36,292 bases of DNA from Clostridia bacterium (GTDB lineage: Bacteria > Bacillota > Clostridia > Oscillospirales > Acutalibacteraceae), in contig JAFYVE010000034.1 in the NCBI GenBank assembly GCA_017549285.1, positions 1 through 36,292 on the forward strand. The letters run 5' to 3'. The notes beneath the pieces were generated by a model. The model was not told the DNA's origin. It did not search any database and was given only the letters and a program-made list of their open reading frames with translations. Positions 8,504 through 14,351 of this stretch are shown one piece after another (the first letter of the stretch is position 1; each line of letters starts with the position of its first letter). The position numbers and the translations under genes are program-made.

Positions 8504-9217
8504 TTAACCTCCGAATAAAGGAATGATACTTCCGATATCATACAATTGATTATCATCGAGTGATAAAGCTTTCACAGAATACTTTTCAAGGAATTCCATT
8601 ATTTTATCTGCATCGGAATGAGTGTTTATATCGCCGCAGAAAGCAATTGTATCACGGGATATTCTGCCCGAAGCACCGCCTATGAATCCGTAATCAAAAC
8701 CATTGAGTTTTATACTGCCCTTTGAAAGAAGAAGAACATCAAGACCTTCATTTTCACAGGCAGTTGCAATTGACGGATCATCGGTTATAATTGCGTTATC
8801 GGTAACGGGCAAAACAGAACATTTTGTATATCCTTGTTTTACATTAATAAATATATATTCCTTATCTTTGAAATATTTTAACACAGTCGGTGATACGGTG
8901 TCAATATTACAGATAAGCTTTCTGCCAAGCGGTACACAATTCAGAAGGACATCGTGGGGATATTCTTTTCCGATCTTTTCGGGAATAATTATCACACATG
9001 GAACGATATCTTTCATCAGATTCTCATATTCACTCATTTCTGATGCAATAAAAAGTGTATCCTCTCCGTCAAACAGAAATGATATGTCTGAATGAAAAGC
9101 TATATTTTCATTGACTGAAGTATTTCTGTATGTTGTTATCACATCAAAACCGTATTTTCTCAGATTTGCCGTTGCGTTTTCACTCAGACCGTTTGCAATA
9201 ACAAATTTTTTCATCAC
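8504..9217 (-). CDS. DUF6873-like (GME-fold) protein of unknown function
   Basis: The 237-residue protein resembles the uncharacterised DUF6873 family, thought to share the fold of guanidino-modifying enzymes. Matching segments are HDVLLNCVPLG, QGYTKCSVLPV, AIITDDPSIA, DYGFIGGASG and FCGDINTHSD. I assign this from memory of the family pattern, not from a search. A Cys in GYTKCS and Asp/His residues could form a catalytic site, but no reaction is known to me. I chose the GTG at 9217, which overlaps the radA stop by 4 bases and has GGAG 8 bases upstream; the ATG at 9214 is the alternative. It is co-transcribed with the amidase gene and radA. Confidence 0.78.
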   Translation of the reverse strand: MMKKFVIANGLSENATANLRKYGFDVITTYRNTSVNENIAFHSDISFLFDGEDTLFIASEMSEYENLMKDIVPCVIIIPEKIGKEYPHDVLLNCVPLGRKLICNIDTVSPTVLKYFKDKEYIFINVKQGYTKCSVLPVTDNAIITDDPSIATACENEGLDVLLLSKGSIKLNGFDYGFIGGASGRISRDTIAFCGDINTHSDADKIMEFLEKYSVKALSLDDNQLYDIGSIIPLFGG

Positions 9218-10581
9218 AGAACAATCTCCGTGAAAGCATCACGTATTGTTTTTACACCGCAGATCTGTGCCTGATTTTTAACTTCATCGGGAAGAGATTT
9301 ATAGTTATGATACGGAATGATAATCTTTCTGAAACCGAGTCTGACAGCTTCATTCACACGCTGTGCCGCATTTGAAACGCCTCTGATTTCACCTGCAAGT
9401 CCGATTTCACCGAATGCAATAACATCATCTTTGAGAATCATATCTTTTAATGAAGAAACAAGTGCAAGCACAACAGAAAGGTCAGAAGCAGGTTCATTTA
9501 TACGAAGACCACCGATAATATTGAGATAAACATCGGTATTTGCAAAATAATACCCTGCCCTTTTTTCAAGAACAGCAATAAGCATTGACATACGATTGAA
9601 ATCATAGCCGTTTGTCATACGTCGTGGAGTGCCGAATCCCGTTGGAGTAACAAGAGCCTGAACTTCGGCAAGAATCGGTCTTGAACCCTCCATAACACAC
9701 ATTACGCACGTACCTGAAGTATTTTTCGGTCTGCCTTCAAGAAGCATTTCAGAGGGATTAGGAACTTCTTCAAGACCAGAATCACTCATTGTGAAGACAC
9801 CTATTTCATTTGTTGAACCGAAACGGTTTTTAACAGCTCTTAAAATACGGTAAGACATATTCTTGTCACCCTCAAAGTAAAGAACTGTATCAACAATATG
9901 CTCAAGCACCTTGGGACCTGCAATATTACCGTCTTTATTGACATGACCGACAATAAAGACGGGAATTGAAAGACTTTTGGCAGTTCTCATAAAGAGATTT
10001 GTGCATTCACGTACCTGAGTAACACTGCCCGTAGCGGACTGCACATCAGTTATATTCATTGTCTGAATAGAGTCAATGATAACCACATCGGGTTTATCCT
10101 TCATAATGATTTCAGTTATATATTCTGCATCTGTTTCACAAAGAACAAACAGATTTTTACCCGTTGCGTCAAGTCTTGAGGCTCTGAGTTTTATCTGACT
10201 TGCAGATTCTTCTCCTGAAACATATAGAACTTTTTTTGTTTGTGCAAGATTCTTACAAGCCTGAAGAAGAATTGTTGATTTGCCAATACCGGGGTCACCG
10301 CCGATAAGAACAAGCGAACCTTTTACAAGTCCGCCTCCGAGTACACGGTTAAATTCCGAAATCCCCGTATCATAACGGATTTCGGAAGTTTCACTTATTT
10401 CGTCAATAATAACTGCCCTGCTTCTGTCTGCATTAAAGCTTCTTTTTTTCTCTGCTGAAGCTGAAACAGAAAACTCCTCCATAGTGTTCCATTCACCGCA
10501 TGAAGGACATTGACCAAACCATTTTGCACTGTCGTAACCGCATTGACTGCAGACATAAGCTGTTTTATTTTTCGGAGCCAT
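9214..10581 (-). CDS. radA: DNA repair protein RadA (Sms)
   Basis: RadA is a RecA-like ATPase that promotes branch migration during recombination and repair. The 455-residue length is normal. In order: a four-cysteine zinc finger (CSQCGYDS to CPSCGEWNT, residues 11-32), Walker A GGDPGIGKST (94-103), Walker B VVIIDSIQT, the RadA-specific KNRFG motif in AVKNRFGSTNEIG, and a C-terminal Lon-protease-like domain. The start is the ATG at 10581, after AAAGGCGGG. The gene follows the amidase by 17 bases and overlaps the next gene by 4 bases, so all are in one operon. Confidence 0.96.
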   Translation of the reverse strand: MAPKNKTAYVCSQCGYDSAKWFGQCPSCGEWNTMEEFSVSASAEKKRSFNADRSRAVIIDEISETSEIRYDTGISEFNRVLGGGLVKGSLVLIGGDPGIGKSTILLQACKNLAQTKKVLYVSGEESASQIKLRASRLDATGKNLFVLCETDAEYITEIIMKDKPDVVIIDSIQTMNITDVQSATGSVTQVRECTNLFMRTAKSLSIPVFIVGHVNKDGNIAGPKVLEHIVDTVLYFEGDKNMSYRILRAVKNRFGSTNEIGVFTMSDSGLEEVPNPSEMLLEGRPKNTSGTCVMCVMEGSRPILAEVQALVTPTGFGTPRRMTNGYDFNRMSMLIAVLEKRAGYYFANTDVYLNIIGGLRINEPASDLSVVLALVSSLKDMILKDDVIAFGEIGLAGEIRGVSNAAQRVNEAVRLGFRKIIIPYHNYKSLPDEVKNQAQICGVKTIRDAFTEIVL

Positions 10582-10598: not shown

Positions 10599-11330
10599 TC
10601 AGTACGCACCGGTACTGTATTCCTGAGTTTTATTATTTATATAATCAATTATTCCGTCACAGATTGCTTCAGCTATTCTTTTCTGATAATCTTCATTTTT
10701 TAGCTTTTCAAGTTCTTCACTATTTGAGAGAAAACCACATTCGGCAAGGATTGCAACGGCTTTTGTTTTATACATGAGATAAACTGATTTATCACATTTC
10801 TTGATTTGTCTTGTGTTATCGGGCTGAAGTTTTTTAACAACAGTTTTTTGTACATATGAAGCAAGAGCTTCACTTTCAGGATTATTGGGAGAATAAAAAA
10901 CCTGAGTGCCGTTATATTTGCTTTCGGTAAAATAATTCTGATGAACGGAAACATAAATGCTGTTTTTGTATTTTTCTGATATTTTCAGCCTGTTTCTTAT
11001 ATCGGAAACTTTCTGTTCTTTGATTGTATTTGCATTTGCATCGTGAATTGAATTATTATCATCACGTATAAGAAGGGTTTTATACCCTTTTTTTACAAGA
11101 TAATCATTCATTTTCAAAGCAATTGCAAGATTGAGATGCTGTTCTTCAGTCCCGTCAGGAGCTACTGCACCGCCGTCTTTTCCTCCGTGTCCTGCGTCAA
11201 TTATGATAAGCGGAACATCGTCAGATACGGAACTGACAACAGATTTTTCAAAAGAAGCATTGATAAAAACAAGAAAAATCAATACTACTGCTATTATAGA
11301 ATAATATCCGTAATTTATCAAGTGTTTCAT
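10599..11330 (-). CDS. N-acetylmuramoyl-L-alanine amidase, CwlD-like
   Basis: This Amidase_3 family zinc enzyme cleaves the bond between N-acetylmuramic acid and L-alanine in peptidoglycan. The 243-residue protein has an N-terminal membrane/signal segment (about residues 8-24), then IIIDAGHGGKDGG (first zinc His), the acidic EEQHLNLAIALKMNDYL helix, SVHQNYF (second zinc His) and LAECGFLSN (catalytic Glu). Size and the AECGFLSN/YQKRIAEAI ending resemble CwlD, the amidase needed for spore-cortex muramic lactam, but no other sporulation gene is visible. The start is the ATG at 11330, after GGGTGA; the upstream in-frame extension runs back over the promoter region to 11408. Confidence 0.9.
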   Translation of the reverse strand: MKHLINYGYYSIIAVVLIFLVFINASFEKSVVSSVSDDVPLIIIDAGHGGKDGGAVAPDGTEEQHLNLAIALKMNDYLVKKGYKTLLIRDDNNSIHDANANTIKEQKVSDIRNRLKISEKYKNSIYVSVHQNYFTESKYNGTQVFYSPNNPESEALASYVQKTVVKKLQPDNTRQIKKCDKSVYLMYKTKAVAILAECGFLSNSEELEKLKNEDYQKRIAEAICDGIIDYINNKTQEYSTGAY

Positions 11331-11351: not shown

Positions 11352-11381
11352 ATTATAAAATAGTAAAAAATATTCCGTAAA
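11352..11381 (-). promoter_or_regulatory. Candidate promoter of the amidase-radA operon
   Basis: On the minus strand, TTTACG (11381-11376) is 18 bases from a perfect TATAAT (11357-11352). The -35 touches the end of the small-peptide terminator, so the two units are packed tightly. Confidence 0.55.
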
Positions 11382-11416
11382 AAGAAAAATCTCCATGGCT
11401 TCTGCCATGGAGATTT
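11381..11416 (-). terminator. Strong terminator after the 38-residue peptide gene
   Basis: A perfect 13-bp stem (11387-11399 with 11404-11416) centred on CCATGG and closed by a 4-base loop is followed on the minus strand by TTTTTCTTT. It begins 9 bases after the peptide stop codon and is the longest perfect terminator stem I noticed in the window. Confidence 0.93.
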
Positions 11417-11425
11417 ATTACTGAA

Positions 11426-11542
11426 TTAGAATAAGTCGATTGAATACTGTTCAGCAAGTGCAAAAACGTCGTCCCAACCGATGATACCGAGCTTCCACAT
11501 CATCTTGAGAACAACCTTGAGGAGCTTAAGGATAACCTTCAT
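11426..11542 (-). CDS. 38-residue amphipathic peptide, autonomous gene
   Basis: This frame has an ATG at 11542 and a TAA at 11428-11426. The product starts MKVILKLLKVVLKMMWKLG and ends AEQYSIDLF. Lysines at 2, 6, 9, 13 and 17 fall on one face of a helix and hydrophobic residues on the other. The second half is acidic (DD, E, D). A purine-rich AAAGGTAGG site lies 8 bases upstream. The unit has its own promoter (11581-11609) and strong terminator (11381-11416). All five Lys codons are AAG, all four Ile codons ATC, all three Asp codons GAC, and half of the Leu codons CTC, as in the highly expressed gap gene here and unlike neighbouring genes. I recognise no family. Membrane-active peptide, leaderless bacteriocin, signal or small regulator are possible. 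Confidence 0.78.
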   Translation of the reverse strand: MKVILKLLKVVLKMMWKLGIIGWDDVFALAEQYSIDLF

Positions 11543-11580
11543 TTTTTTCGCCTACCTTTCACATATAACAATGTAACTTA

Positions 11581-11609
11581 ATTATACATTAACAAATAGA
11601 CAAAATCAA
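11581..11609 (-). promoter_or_regulatory. Promoter of the 38-residue peptide gene
   Basis: On the minus strand, TTGATT (11609-11604), 17 bases, then a perfect TATAAT (11586-11581). The predicted start near 11574 gives a leader of about 32 bases to the ATG. Confidence 0.8.
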
Positions 11610-11626
11610 GCAATTATGGAAATGTT

Positions 11627-11656
11627 AAAAAACAGTTAATATTTATAAAACATTAA
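11627..11656 (-). terminator. AT-rich terminator after the cyclophilin gene
   Basis: A 9-bp AT-rich stem (11636-11644 with 11648-11656, one G-U pair, 3-base loop) overlaps the stop codon of the preceding gene. On the minus strand it is followed by CTG and six T. It would separate the cyclophilin operon from the small-peptide gene. Confidence 0.6.
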
Positions 11657-12321
11657 TTTAAAGTTTCAGGTTCTGCGTAATTCACACCGAAAGTATCAAC
11701 AGAAATTGATTCGATTATTATCTTATTTACAGGTGTTGACATCTCACCGCTTGACATATTGAGAGTAACTTCCGCATCTGCAATTTTATCAAGAACATCG
11801 AGACCTTCAATTACCTTACCGAAAGCGGCATACTGACCGTCAAGATGAGGAGCATCTTCATGCATAATAAAAAACTGTGAACCTGCTGAATCAGGCATTT
11901 TGCTTCTTGCCATTGAAATAACGCCTCTTGTGTGAGCAAGGTCATTTTCAACACCGTTACCTGAAAATTCACCTTTGATGCTGTAACCCGGGTCACCGCC
12001 CCCTGTACCATCAGGACAGCCGCCCTGAATCATAAAGCCTTTATATACTCTGTGGAATGTAAGACCGTCATAAAAAGCTTTATTTGCAAGAGAGATGAAG
12101 TTTTTGACTGTATTGGGAGCTTTGTCAGGATAAAGTTCAACTTTCATTACACCATAATCTTTGACGGTGATTGTTGCAACAGGGTTGCCTGTTGCAGAAT
12201 CAACAGATGAATTGTTTTCCGTATCTTTATCTGAATCATTGTTGTTTTTTGTGCAACCTGAAAATGCAAGAACAGAAAACATAAGAACAAATGCTAAAAC
12301 CAATGATACGTATTTTTTCAT
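11653..12321 (-). CDS. Cyclophilin-type peptidyl-prolyl isomerase, lipoprotein
   Basis: The 222-residue protein is an extracellular, membrane-tethered folding catalyst. It has a lipoprotein signal peptide ending AFSGC (Cys23), a Asn/Asp/Ser-rich linker, and a full cyclophilin domain from about residue 50. The catalytic Arg is present in FHRVYKGFMIQGG, and the GSQFFIMH and FGKVIEGLDVLDKI segments are intact. AAAGGA lies upstream of the ATG at 12321. It follows a diverged second cyclophilin by 18 bases and is the last gene of a three-gene unit with a sugar-phosphate transferase. Confidence 0.94.
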   Translation of the reverse strand: MKKYVSLVLAFVLMFSVLAFSGCTKNNNDSDKDTENNSSVDSATGNPVATITVKDYGVMKVELYPDKAPNTVKNFISLANKAFYDGLTFHRVYKGFMIQGGCPDGTGGGDPGYSIKGEFSGNGVENDLAHTRGVISMARSKMPDSAGSQFFIMHEDAPHLDGQYAAFGKVIEGLDVLDKIADAEVTLNMSSGEMSTPVNKIIIESISVDTFGVNYAEPETLN

Positions 12322-12339: not shown

Positions 12340-12981
12340 TTATTTACGGATAATTGTGGGATTCGGAAAATCAACACCGAAATCGTTTATTTTAACAGAT
12401 TTTATACCGACAGGAGAAGTAAACTTACCGTCTGTATTCTCTGCAGACGCCAGAGCATCAACAACATCCATACCTTCAATCACTTTACCGAAAGCTGTGA
12501 ATGTATTATCAAAGTGTTTCTGGTCTTTTGTAAGGATGAAGAACTGACCTGTAAGCGTATCAGAATCTGATGTTCTTATCATTGAAACAATGCCTCTTTC
12601 ATGAGTAAGAACAGCATTATCTTTATCCTGAAGTTCATCCTTTACGTAATATGGTGCTGATGCTTCAGATGACTGATAACCTGTCATAAGAATACATTTA
12701 TTACGCACTTCAGAGAAACACATTGTATTGTAAACTTTCTCATTTGCAAAAGCAATAAAATTTGCAACAGCATTAGGAGCTGCATTATAGTAAAGTTCGA
12801 TCTTTATAACGGCATTATTTGTAAGAGTTATAACTGCTTCAGGATTCTTTTCAACTTCAACAGTTATAATTTCATCACCTGTGGGATATTCTTCATAGAA
12901 ATTCCCGTCAGGTTCATTCTTGCACGAACAAAAAGAAACACCAATTATAAAAATGAGCATAAGACAGATAACTTTTTTCAT
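12340..12981 (-). CDS. Diverged cyclophilin-like lipoprotein, catalytic Arg lost
   Basis: The 213-residue protein is a paralogue of the next gene. It has a short lipoprotein signal ending FCSC (Cys20, or Cys18) and a cyclophilin-like domain. QFFILTKDQKHF and AFGKVIEGMDVVDAL are well kept, but the active-site block FHRVxxGFMIQGG is replaced by FSEVRNKCILMTG. The catalytic Arg is therefore Glu, and the glycine-rich loop is degraded. Proline-isomerase activity is unlikely; a binding or chaperone role is possible. The ATG at 12981 overlaps the stop of the upstream transferase gene by 4 bases, with GGAG inside that gene, so the two are translationally coupled. Confidence 0.88.
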   Translation of the reverse strand: MKKVICLMLIFIIGVSFCSCKNEPDGNFYEEYPTGDEIITVEVEKNPEAVITLTNNAVIKIELYYNAAPNAVANFIAFANEKVYNTMCFSEVRNKCILMTGYQSSEASAPYYVKDELQDKDNAVLTHERGIVSMIRTSDSDTLTGQFFILTKDQKHFDNTFTAFGKVIEGMDVVDALASAENTDGKFTSPVGIKSVKINDFGVDFPNPTIIRK

Positions 12982-14351
12982 TTATTATCGTCTCCTTTCG
13001 TCTTTTTGAAACCTTCGGTGCTTTCTTTCATAAAAAGGATTTTTACAGTAAGTAAAATAAGTCGAAAATCAAGAAAGAAAGAGAACTTCTGTATGTATTC
13101 GAGGTCAAGCAACAGTTTATCATAGGGAGTTGTGTTGTATTTACCCATAATCTGTGCATATCCCGTAAGCCCTGCCTTAACTTTTGTACGGAACGGGAAT
13201 TCCGGAATCTGCTGAGAATATGAATTGTGATGCTCTACTCTTTCAGGTCGGGGCCCGACAAGTGACATATCGCCTTTAAGGATATTGAAAAGCTGAGGAA
13301 GCTCATCAAGACGGAGTTTTCTGATAATTGCACCAACAGGCGTAATTCTCGGATCATTATCTGTTGCCGGAACAGATTTATTATCCTTTTCAGCATCAAC
13401 AATCATACTTCTGAATTTGTAGATTTCAAAAACTTTTTCGTTTCTTGTAACACGTTTCTGTTTAAAGAGTACAGGACCTCCGTCATAAGCTTTTATTGCA
13501 ATTGCAATAGCTGCCATAACAGGCGCAAGAATAACAAGTCCGAAGAATGAAGCAAAAACATCAAATATACGTTTAAATAAACGCTGAGTATCTGTCAGAG
13601 AACAATTTCTGCACACAATCAGAGGAGAATCAAACTGATCAAGTGATTTTGCACCTCTTATAATAACATCGGAAATTCTCGGGGGAAGAAAAACTTCAAT
13701 ATCATTATCATAACAGAATTTAAGCAGATCGTTTCTTACGCTACTTTCAAGTCTGTAAATTATAACTGCGTGATATCTTTTTATACAGTCTTTTACATAT
13801 ACCAGATTATCATCAGACATAAGTGACTGTCCTTCATAATGAACAGTTTCACAGATTCTGTACTGATCTTCACGTTCAAGGATTTTGTAGACAATATCTT
13901 CTGCTTTTTTATCACCGTAAACAAGAAGAAGCTCGGTTATTGAGAAATACTTCTTATTGACAATAAAAGCTATATATGTCCATCCTACCGAGAAAGCAAT
14001 TTCAACAACTGTGAGCATAAGAATATAAAGCACAGGAAGAAAAGCTCTGTTGATAAGGCTCAGCTGTAAATATGAAAGTACGTTCACAAAACCGATTCCG
14101 ATAATATGTGAAAGAATTATATTCAGCTTTTTGTTATACCCGATTCTGAATGCTCCCATCATTCTGAGAATGAATGTCATAATGAAGCAATACAGAACAA
14201 CCATAAGGTATCCGCCCGAATCGAGAGGTGCTTCAAATATTTTATTGTAGCCGAAAAACAGAATAAGATAGAAAAGAACTGTGTAAATACTCACAATAAA
14301 GAATGAAGACACAAATCTGAAAATATTCTGTTTATTTTGTTTCTTGTTCAT
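12978..14351 (-). CDS. Polyprenyl glycosylphosphotransferase (exopolysaccharide initiating sugar transferase)
   Basis: This 457-residue membrane enzyme moves a sugar-1-phosphate from a nucleotide sugar to undecaprenyl phosphate, the first step of a surface polysaccharide or protein glycan. Four to five N-terminal membrane segments (about residues 12-140) precede a diverged nucleotide-binding-like region (about 145-250). The C-terminal Bac_transf domain has KRIFDVFASFFGLVILAPV (membrane re-entrant helix), FKQKRVTRNEKVFEIYKFRS, LRKLRLDELPQLFNILKGDM-type motif and SLVGPRPE. No Shine-Dalgarno sequence is evident before the ATG at 14351, the only such case in this stretch. It heads a unit with two cyclophilin lipoproteins; no other glycan genes are adjacent. 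Confidence 0.93.
   Translation of the reverse strand: MNKKQNKQNIFRFVSSFFIVSIYTVLFYLILFFGYNKIFEAPLDSGGYLMVVLYCFIMTFILRMMGAFRIGYNKKLNIILSHIIGIGFVNVLSYLQLSLINRAFLPVLYILMLTVVEIAFSVGWTYIAFIVNKKYFSITELLLVYGDKKAEDIVYKILEREDQYRICETVHYEGQSLMSDDNLVYVKDCIKRYHAVIIYRLESSVRNDLLKFCYDNDIEVFLPPRISDVIIRGAKSLDQFDSPLIVCRNCSLTDTQRLFKRIFDVFASFFGLVILAPVMAAIAIAIKAYDGGPVLFKQKRVTRNEKVFEIYKFRSMIVDAEKDNKSVPATDNDPRITPVGAIIRKLRLDELPQLFNILKGDMSLVGPRPERVEHHNSYSQQIPEFPFRTKVKAGLTGYAQIMGKYNTTPYDKLLLDLEYIQKFSFFLDFRLILLTVKILFMKESTEGFKKTKGDDNK

What the first reader, a model, noticed from the sequence alone, without database searches (positions are those of the whole stretch)
11381..11609. Autonomous gene for a 38-residue amphipathic peptide
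A complete small transcription unit sits between two operons: promoter (TATAAT, 17-base spacing), ribosome-binding site, 38-codon frame, and a 13-bp perfect terminator 9 bases after the stop. The peptide has Lys at 2, 6, 9, 13 and 17 on one face of a hydrophobic helix, two Trp, and an acidic second half. Its codons are those of highly expressed genes (Lys AAG 5/5, Ile ATC 4/4, Asp GAC 3/3), unlike its neighbours and like gap, implying abundant product. There is no signal peptide or known leader motif. It could be a membrane-active peptide, a leaderless bacteriocin-like or phenol-soluble-modulin-like product, a signal, or a small protein regulator.
Basis: partly seen in the sequence, partly recalled or inferred. 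Interest (0 to 1): 0.75.

Follow-up and report, generated by a model that had tools for sequence, protein, structure and literature searches.

The report
Abundant amphipathic microprotein gene family
A tiny gene for a 38-residue helix-forming protein is real, stands on its own with its own on and off signals, has relatives in related bacteria, and carries the codon signature of heavily made proteins, yet it matched no protein family in the libraries searched and its function is not shown.

Summary
A 38-codon gene (11426-11542, minus strand) has a TTGATT-17-TATAAT promoter, an RBS and a 13-bp terminator stem. Nine syntenic loci, this one included (eight genomes of the genus, one of another genus), keep an intact frame, a 17-spaced promoter and a hairpin after the stop; dN/dS is 0.11-0.41 in three computable pairs. 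The gene sits just downstream of a cyclophilin in 9 of 9, and a distant relative does so in a third genus. Its codon adaptation (CAI 0.80) exceeds each of the 11 S10-operon ribosomal genes used as yardstick. The same genome holds a diverged paralogue, type B (CAI 0.84), found in 9 of 11 genus genomes; every one of the 11 has A, B or both. A third type occurs in other genera of the family. Pfam, NCBIfam and PHROGs give no match. Architecture: cationic amphipathic helix, glycine turn, acidic remainder, no Cys. Best reading: an abundant, constitutively made, membrane-surface-binding microprotein acting inside the cell; an exported PSM-like peptide is the main rival. Leaderless bacteriocin, AgrD, RiPP precursor, type I toxin, attenuator and non-coding RNA are disfavoured. 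Translation, location and function are not shown.

The parts
11581..11609 (-). Promoter of the peptide gene: -35 TTGATT (11609-11604), 17-nt spacer, -10 TATAAT (11586-11581)
   Evidence: TTGATT with a 17-nt spacer in 8 of 9 syntenic loci, TTGCAA with 17 in G001
11551..11559 (-). Ribosome-binding site AAAGGTAGG
   Evidence: GAAAGG upstream of the ATG in 8 of 9 loci, AAAAAGGAG in G253
11426..11542 (-). 38-codon gene of the amphipathic microprotein (type A), with stop
11387..11416 (-). Intrinsic terminator, 13-bp stem and 4-nt loop, followed by a T-rich tail
   Evidence: a hairpin starting 9-17 nt after the stop in 9 of 9 loci, with a poor T tail in some (G006, G007, G008)
11653..12321 (-). Cyclophilin-type peptidyl-prolyl isomerase (ppi1), the constant upstream neighbour; N-terminus looks like a lipoprotein signal (by eye)
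   Evidence: PF00160
12340..12981 (-). Second cyclophilin (ppi2)
12978..14351 (-). Exopolysaccharide sugar transferase
   Evidence: TIGR03025
14430..16319 (-). FtsH membrane protease, upstream in the same gene order
   Evidence: TIGR01241
11352..11381 (-). Promoter-like site ahead of the downstream amidase (TTTACG-18-TATAAT)
10599..11330 (-). CwlD-like N-acetylmuramoyl-L-alanine amidase (start taken at 11330 by comparison with L002); downstream neighbour in 8 of 9 type A loci
   Evidence: (TIGR02883 203 bits, cut-off 221.55)
9214..10581 (-). radA
   Evidence: TIGR00416

Best explanation
The gene encodes an abundant, constitutively made microprotein of a family that I found in no library searched and that seems restricted to one taxonomic family. 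Shown by sequence: coding, under purifying selection, with its own consensus housekeeping-type promoter and terminator, codon-optimised, and at least one member (A or B) in each of the 11 genus genomes. Inferred: the first helix (residues 2-17) lies flat in the inner leaflet of the cytoplasmic membrane with the Lys side facing the headgroups; the Gly turn and the acidic second segment stay in the cytosol and mediate self-association or contact with a partner. The product would coat or tune the membrane surface, or a membrane protein. FtsH, encoded in the same gene order, is one candidate partner, because SpoVM and phage lambda CIII are amphipathic peptides that inhibit FtsH.
For: Intact syntenic frames with a conserved start and N-terminal pattern in 9 loci; dN/dS 0.11, 0.20, 0.41 for three of four A pairs (the fourth has saturated dS) and 0.10-0.29 for five B pairs; CAI above the ribosomal yardstick for A and B; the same codon shift pooled over 25 members against flanking frames: Lys AAG 76/116 vs 430/1226, Ile ATC 70/122 vs 436/1459, Leu CTY 170/213 vs 838/1530; promoters whose -10 box ends 31-38 nt before the ATG in 9 of 9 A and 9 of 11 B members, and hairpins after the stop in all of them. 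First 20 residues net +4 to +6 in A, the rest -2 to -9. AF2 models: A helices 2-17 and 23-33, pLDDT 75; B helices 2-20, 23-33, 37-43, pLDDT 71. Lys at every third or fourth residue through helix 1 does not fit a transmembrane span (inference). Core-like presence in the genus: A read in 8 of 11, B in 9 of 11, at least one in 11 of 11. ftsH in the same neighbourhood in 9 of 10 loci counting the window. FtsH inhibition by amphipathic SpoVM and CIII: PMC1838920, passages read.
Against: No localisation, binding or expression data. The AF2 models have low pTM (A 0.35, B 0.37); the A model has no PDB fold match (B was not searched). The gene does not track ftsH strictly: none found on the 14,958-base G253 contig, and paralogue B lies elsewhere. 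Helix 1 of G007 and G009 is only weakly amphipathic by the moment test (shuffle P 0.11), and B members are weaker than most of A (P 0.002-0.096). The codon signal is weak in single members (G001 type A, G006 type B). Nothing in the sequence fixes the protein inside the cell.
Confidence: 0.5

Rival explanations
1. An exported, leaderless, surface-active peptide like staphylococcal phenol-soluble modulins: made in bulk, exported by an ABC transporter, acting on surfaces, aggregation or competitors.
For: Leaderless amphipathic helix without Cys, 38-49 aa in type A, near the 43-45 aa of beta-type PSMs (PMC12607899 passages); high expected expression; two members per genome where both were read, e.g. 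A and B in G000, B and C in G209.
Against: No sequence match in Pfam or NCBIfam at E<=10; no exporter recognised among the 8 neighbours scanned, though exporters elsewhere in the genome were not searched for; one conserved chromosomal place in most of the genus.
Confidence: 0.25
2. An intracellular modulator of the FtsH protease encoded in the same gene order, working like SpoVM or phage lambda CIII (a special case of the best explanation).
For: Amphipathic helix; ftsH in the neighbourhood in 9 of 10 loci counting the window; both known peptides are amphipathic, membrane-associated FtsH inhibitors (PMC1838920 passages).
Against: Adjacency may be neutral synteny; no ftsH on the G253 contig; paralogue B sits elsewhere; an inhibitor made at ribosomal-protein levels would be odd.
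Confidence: 0.12
3. A partner or client of the cyclophilin next door (ppi1).
For: The gene is directly downstream of a cyclophilin in 9 of 9 type A loci and in G108 of a third genus, also where the amidase is not beside it (G001, G108) or the second cyclophilin lies 5 kb away (G008) (window).
Against: The cyclophilin starts with a lipoprotein-like signal (by eye) while the peptide has none; the helix-1 Pro of 6 of 9 type A members is missing in G000, G004 and G253; types B and C, G108 apart, were not seen beside a cyclophilin (not read for L058).
Confidence: 0.05
4. Leaderless (class IId) bacteriocin.
For: No leader, Lys- and Trp-containing amphipathic helix.
Against: Net charge -4 to +2 (A), -7 to 0 (B), -6 to +1 (C), against +3 to +8 in the table entries I saw in PMC6131525 (passages); no immunity or export gene recognised beside it.
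Confidence: 0.04
5. Attenuator leader peptide or a non-coding RNA.
For: Short frame with a terminator before the amidase gene.
Against: dN/dS below 1 in every computable pair; the amidase has its own promoter-like site; in G001, and for the relative in G108, peptide and hairpin persist without the amidase behind them. No Rfam match in the window at gathering scores.
Confidence: 0.02
6. Hydrophobic type I toxin.
For: Small amphipathic peptide; two 9-of-12 promoter-like sites on the opposite strand over or beside the gene (11558-11585, 11589-11617).
Against: Consensus promoter, good RBS and codon optimisation predict constitutive high expression; core-like distribution. The antisense sites were not tested for conservation.
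Confidence: 0.02

Closest known systems
Phenol-soluble modulins of staphylococci
   Same: Leaderless, short, amphipathic helix, more than one gene per genome, high expression expected
   Different: No sequence relationship detected; acidic second half; export not shown; codon-optimised core-like gene in Oscillospiraceae relatives
SpoVM (Bacilli and Clostridia)
   Same: Tiny amphipathic, membrane-binding type of peptide; SpoIVA, the SpoVM partner, is present in 9 of 12 genomes searched
   Different: Pro9, the only invariant SpoVM residue (PMC5607322), is Lys (7) or Leu (2) in the nine type A members; housekeeping-type promoter; rpmB not among the 8 neighbours scanned
Phage lambda CIII
   Same: Amphipathic helix peptide; works on FtsH, whose gene is close by here
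   Different: No PHROG match; constitutive-looking chromosomal gene
Class IId leaderless bacteriocins (aureocin A53, lacticin Q, enterocin L50)
   Same: No leader, Lys and Trp in an amphipathic helix
   Different: Near-neutral to acidic overall; no immunity or transport gene recognised beside it
The 29-aa Clostridiales families 386917 and 386898 of MetaRibo-Seq (PMC7324362)
   Same: Tiny Clostridiales proteins, reported as the most highly translated in that paper's data from human fecal samples (passages)
   Different: 29 aa instead of 38; their sequences are in a figure and supplement that I could not read, so kinship is untested

Membership tests
Phenol-soluble modulins | Amphipathic alpha-helical peptide without signal peptide | tested here: met
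   Moment-shuffle P <=0.0015 in 7 of 9 type A members, 0.11 in G007 and G009; helix predicted; no signal by reading the sequence
Phenol-soluble modulins | Length of 20-25 aa (alpha) or 43-45 aa (beta) | tested here: inconclusive
   Type A 38-49 aa, two of nine within 43-45; classes from PMC12607899 passages
Phenol-soluble modulins | Sequence relationship to known PSM families | tested here: not met
   0 Pfam and NCBIfam families at E<=10 for the window peptide; for 6 other members none at E<=1 except a porin hit at 0.13, below its cut-off
Phenol-soluble modulins | Export by Pmt or AbcA type transporters | not testable with these tools
   Needs a culture or heterologous export test; no whole-genome transporter search was made
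Leaderless bacteriocins | Synthesis without leader peptide | tested here: met
   By reading the sequence: Met is followed directly by the helix
Leaderless bacteriocins | Cationic net charge | tested here: not met
   A -4 to +2, B -7 to 0, C -6 to +1
Leaderless bacteriocins | Export and immunity genes alongside | tested here: not met
   None by family name among the 8 neighbours of A (Pfam and NCBIfam) or 7 near B in the own genome (NCBIfam only)
SpoVM | Invariant Pro9 | tested here: not met
   Residue 9 is Lys in 7 and Leu in 2 of 9 type A members (sequences); Pro9 rule from PMC5607322, figure legend passage
SpoVM | Partner SpoIVA present | tested here: met
   PF09547 in 9 of 12 genomes; the misses (G002, G010, G253) are 68-86% complete
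FtsH-inhibitor peptides (lambda CIII, SpoVM) | Binds and inhibits FtsH | not testable with these tools
   Only gene neighbourhood seen
AgrD cyclic signal precursors | Cys (or Ser) core with AgrB next to it (recalled) | tested here: not met
   0 Cys in 25 of 25 members; no AgrB named among the 8 neighbours scanned. A Ser-based core was not examined.
RiPP precursor for B12 radical SAM enzymes | Occurs together with the modifying enzyme | tested here: not met
   B present in G001, G002, G005, G008, G010 with no match to the rSAM protein at E<=1e-20 and in G003 with one weak match (1.6e-25); G007 and G009 have strong matches but no B. Other modifying enzymes were not tested.
Type I toxins | Antisense RNA controlling a hydrophobic toxin | tested here: inconclusive
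   Only two 9-of-12 promoter-like sites on the other strand

The most novel reading that the evidence does not exclude
These cells devote top-rank expression to an undescribed, clade-specific set of two or more charge-segregated helix-turn-helix microproteins (A and B in this genus, C in sister genera). They would be among the most abundant proteins of the cell and would form an intracellular membrane-surface layer or regulator with no counterpart in model bacteria.
Probability: 0.3. Interest if true: 0.75.

Novelty: new variant of a known kind. Interest (0 to 1): 0.55.

Why it matters
If the codon signal reflects abundance, annotation may be missing some of the most abundant proteins of a group of bacteria known here largely from MAGs. 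[quoted passage not shown] A family of paralogous, single-locus, amphipathic microproteins outside the toxin, bacteriocin and signal classes would be a concrete handle on what such peptides do.

Tried and rejected
Readings disfavoured: leaderless bacteriocin (charge, no immunity or export gene recognised), AgrD (no Cys), RiPP precursor (no co-occurrence with the B12 radical SAM enzymes), attenuator leader (peptide and hairpin persist without the amidase), non-coding RNA (dN/dS), SpoVM (no Pro9). Phage or plasmid origin: no tblastn match of A in phages at E<=1, nor of B in plasmids; no confirmed B match in viral contigs. A was not run on plasmids or viral contigs, nor B on the phage records.

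Led nowhere: PDB fold search of the A model, 0 matches at E<=10; PDB sequence searches with profiles B and A, best E 1.7 and 0.58, unrelated names. Wider than the family: only the own genome of 394 order-level genomes with profile A3 at E<=0.01 and, of 391 class-level genomes with profile B, only the own genome and one unresolved frame without an ATG (G989, L157). These were samples drawn from larger groups. The named-genome scan with the amidase kept the best 80 of 583 confirmed loci; my profile found the peptide in 3 of the 80 (L059, L060, L066).

Rows dropped: of 19 genomes matching profile A2 at E<=0.05 I accepted 9 and dropped 10 (G043, G139, G144, G203, G221, G224, G244, G259, G294, G337), for no credible start, stops inside the match, a much longer frame, a contig end, or simply not worked out. 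Of 12 matching A3 I set aside G013, G018 and G221. Of the 9 first single-protein hits L004, L005, L006 lie in frames of 388-600 aa and were not pursued as members. Type A was not found in G002, G005 and G010 (70-86% complete; by single-protein search, and the amidase was not found either), which I leave as inconclusive.

Limits of the statistics: the codon null also has 23 of 1711 overlapping windows reaching 0.803; dS of G000-G004 (1.98) is near saturation and G000-G003 type A could not be computed; the flanking frames are stop-to-stop and may include non-genes; the moment test takes the best of a few windows but shuffles only that one; most type C members and the first type B members were picked by their score to A, which inflates A-C and to a lesser degree A-B; B-C is weak (19.3 against 17.9 reversed). 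The promoter finder favours 17-nt spacers by its scoring. No tree was built.

Full report
What is there. On the minus strand at 11426-11542 a 38-codon frame encodes MKVILKLLKVVLKMMWKLGIIGWDDVFALAEQYSIDLF. It has a TTGATT-17-TATAAT promoter (11609-11581), an RBS (about 11559-11551) and a 13-pair terminator stem (11416-11387) starting 9 nt after the stop. The promoter scan found 7 sites in the 451-base region against 2.6 expected, the terminator scan 1 against 0.2; conservation, below, carries more weight than these counts.

Is it a gene? A single-protein search of 98 related genomes gave 9 at E<=1, the own genome included. Reading frames and synteny showed that G004, G001, G008 and G003 hold homologues in the same place, behind a cyclophilin and, except in G001, ahead of a CwlD-like amidase. 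Walking from the amidase in 10 genus genomes found G006, G007 and G009 too, and a profile search found G253 of another genus with cyclophilin, peptide, amidase, radA in the same order. All nine frames, the window's included, are intact; M1, K2, I4, L8, K9, K13 and L18 (window numbering) are invariant in the eight genus members as aligned. dN/dS for type A is 0.11 (G000-G004, dS 1.98), 0.20 (G003-G001) and 0.41 (G007-G009, few changes), and not computable for G000-G003; type B gives 0.10-0.29 in five pairs. This is a protein-coding gene.

Transcription unit. TTGATT with a 17-nt spacer and a TATAAT or TATACT box ending 32-38 nt before the ATG is found in 8 of 9 type A loci (G001: TTGCAA, also 17), and a hairpin starts 9-17 nt after the stop in 9 of 9; its T tail is poor in some (G006, G007, G008). 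No terminator was found between the cyclophilin and the peptide in the window, so some read-through transcript is likely (inference).

Expression signal. With 11 S10-operon ribosomal genes of the same genome as yardstick, CAI is 0.803 for the peptide; 23 other window frames lie at 0.33-0.70 and the ribosomal genes at 0.58-0.78; resampling codons for the same amino acids reaches the value in 4 of 20,000 trials, and 23 of 1711 overlapping 38-codon windows of the neighbours do. Over 25 family members against their flanking frames, Lys AAG is 76/116 versus 430/1226, Ile ATC 70/122 versus 436/1459, Leu CTY 170/213 versus 838/1530. Single members vary: G001 type A and G006 type B show little of it in Lys and Ile.

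Family. The genome itself holds a diverged paralogue, type B: MVFLIKLLVKIIKIVIALNKFGLLDEVVSALAGYLPEEYSDLLA at G000:C32:19411 (L042), CAI 0.845, with 0 of 20,000 resamplings reaching it. A type B profile finds it in 9 of 11 genus genomes (not G007, G009), and G288 and G209 of another genus have it too. With A read in 8 of 11, each of the 11 has at least one of the two and six have both. TTGAC with a 17-nt spacer is visible upstream of 10 of 11 type B genes: nine were taken by the finder, and in G002 I read TTGACT-17-TATTCT by eye; none was found in G209. All 11 have a hairpin after the stop, in G001 without a T tail. Type C, with KLG-[LIF]-[LIV]-[NP], occurs in G053, G104, G108, G209 and G288. 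Profile-profile scores: A-B 32.8 against at most 15.8 in 100 column permutations and 16.5 reversed; A-C 47.7 against 17.1 and 22.8; B-C 19.3 against 16.4 and 17.9 (A-B). A-B kinship is well supported, A-C supported but selected for, B-C weak. No credible Pfam, NCBIfam or PHROG match for the members scanned.

Anatomy of the product. The first 20 residues carry net +4 to +6 in A, the rest -2 to -9; none of 25 members has Cys. AF2 gives helix 2-17 and helix 23-33 (pLDDT 75, pTM 0.35) for A and helices 2-20, 23-33, 37-43 (pLDDT 71, pTM 0.37) for B. Such confidence supports the helices but not their packing.

Context. The gene order is HPRT, ftsH, sugar transferase, two cyclophilins, peptide, CwlD-like amidase, radA. 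Across nine relatives' loci (eight of type A, and G108), the peptide is directly behind a cyclophilin in all, though the amidase is not beside it in G001 and G108 and the second cyclophilin lies about 5 kb off in G008. ftsH is near in 8 of these 9, not on the G253 contig. Type B sits in varied places: between napH-like and radical SAM genes in G000, G004 and G006, behind a phosphoesterase-like gene (by eye) in G001 and G003, elsewhere in others. So these genes are free-standing; only type A has a constant neighbour.

How it most likely works. I take it as an abundant intracellular peripheral membrane microprotein: helix 1 in the membrane surface, acidic part outward. FtsH modulation is a special case suggested by neighbourhood and by SpoVM and CIII (PMC1838920, passages read). 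An exported PSM-like role is the chief rival (PMC12607899, passages read). Steps shown: gene, conservation, transcription signals, codon bias. Steps inferred: translation level, membrane binding, location, partner.

Known or not. Seven literature searches listed no paper that I could recognise as describing this family; they covered an open-access library by words only, and catalogues of small proteins such as PMC11364881 (search listing only) may contain it unnamed. PMC7324362 (passages read) reports two 29-aa Clostridiales families as the most highly translated in its data; I could not see their sequences.

Noticed in passing
L156:9649-17993 (G000:C32), downstream of paralogue B: Three consecutive B12-binding radical SAM proteins (KedN5-like, 230-252 bits against a cut-off of 700), a glycosyltransferase-like protein and a fourth radical SAM protein nearest RiPP C-methyltransferases. 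Four or more matches each in G000, G004, G006, G007, G009; one weak in G003 and none at E<=1e-20 in the other five genus genomes.
   Followed up: partly
L028, L040, L043, L044, L045 (G043): A small 1-Mb genome gives five weak profile hits, four of them nearly identical frames (MN-LRILSIF-KILKKLL), which looks like a dispersed repeated element.
   Followed up: no
L039 (G007:C39:31599): A 21-residue frame MKALLHFLKLIIKPLLKIFIF with an RBS, a possible truncated family member in a genome where type B was not found.
   Followed up: no
L157 (G989:C49:11804-11893, another family of the class): Frame with IKLLIFAYKYGIMDTQQSLLQALLKTL resembling type B but without an ATG ahead of it.
   Followed up: no
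window:11610-11657 and the same place in L002: The 48 bases just upstream of the -35 box are identical between G000 and G004, a possible regulator site; not seen in the other loci.
   Followed up: no
window:10599-11330: The amidase scores just under the CwlD cut-off (203 against 221.55 bits) and lies beside radA, an unusual place for a spore cortex enzyme ('unusual' is from recall).
   Followed up: no
L176:1833-6883 (G008): About 5 kb lie between the two cyclophilin genes that are adjacent in the other genus members examined; the peptide stays with the first.
   Followed up: no
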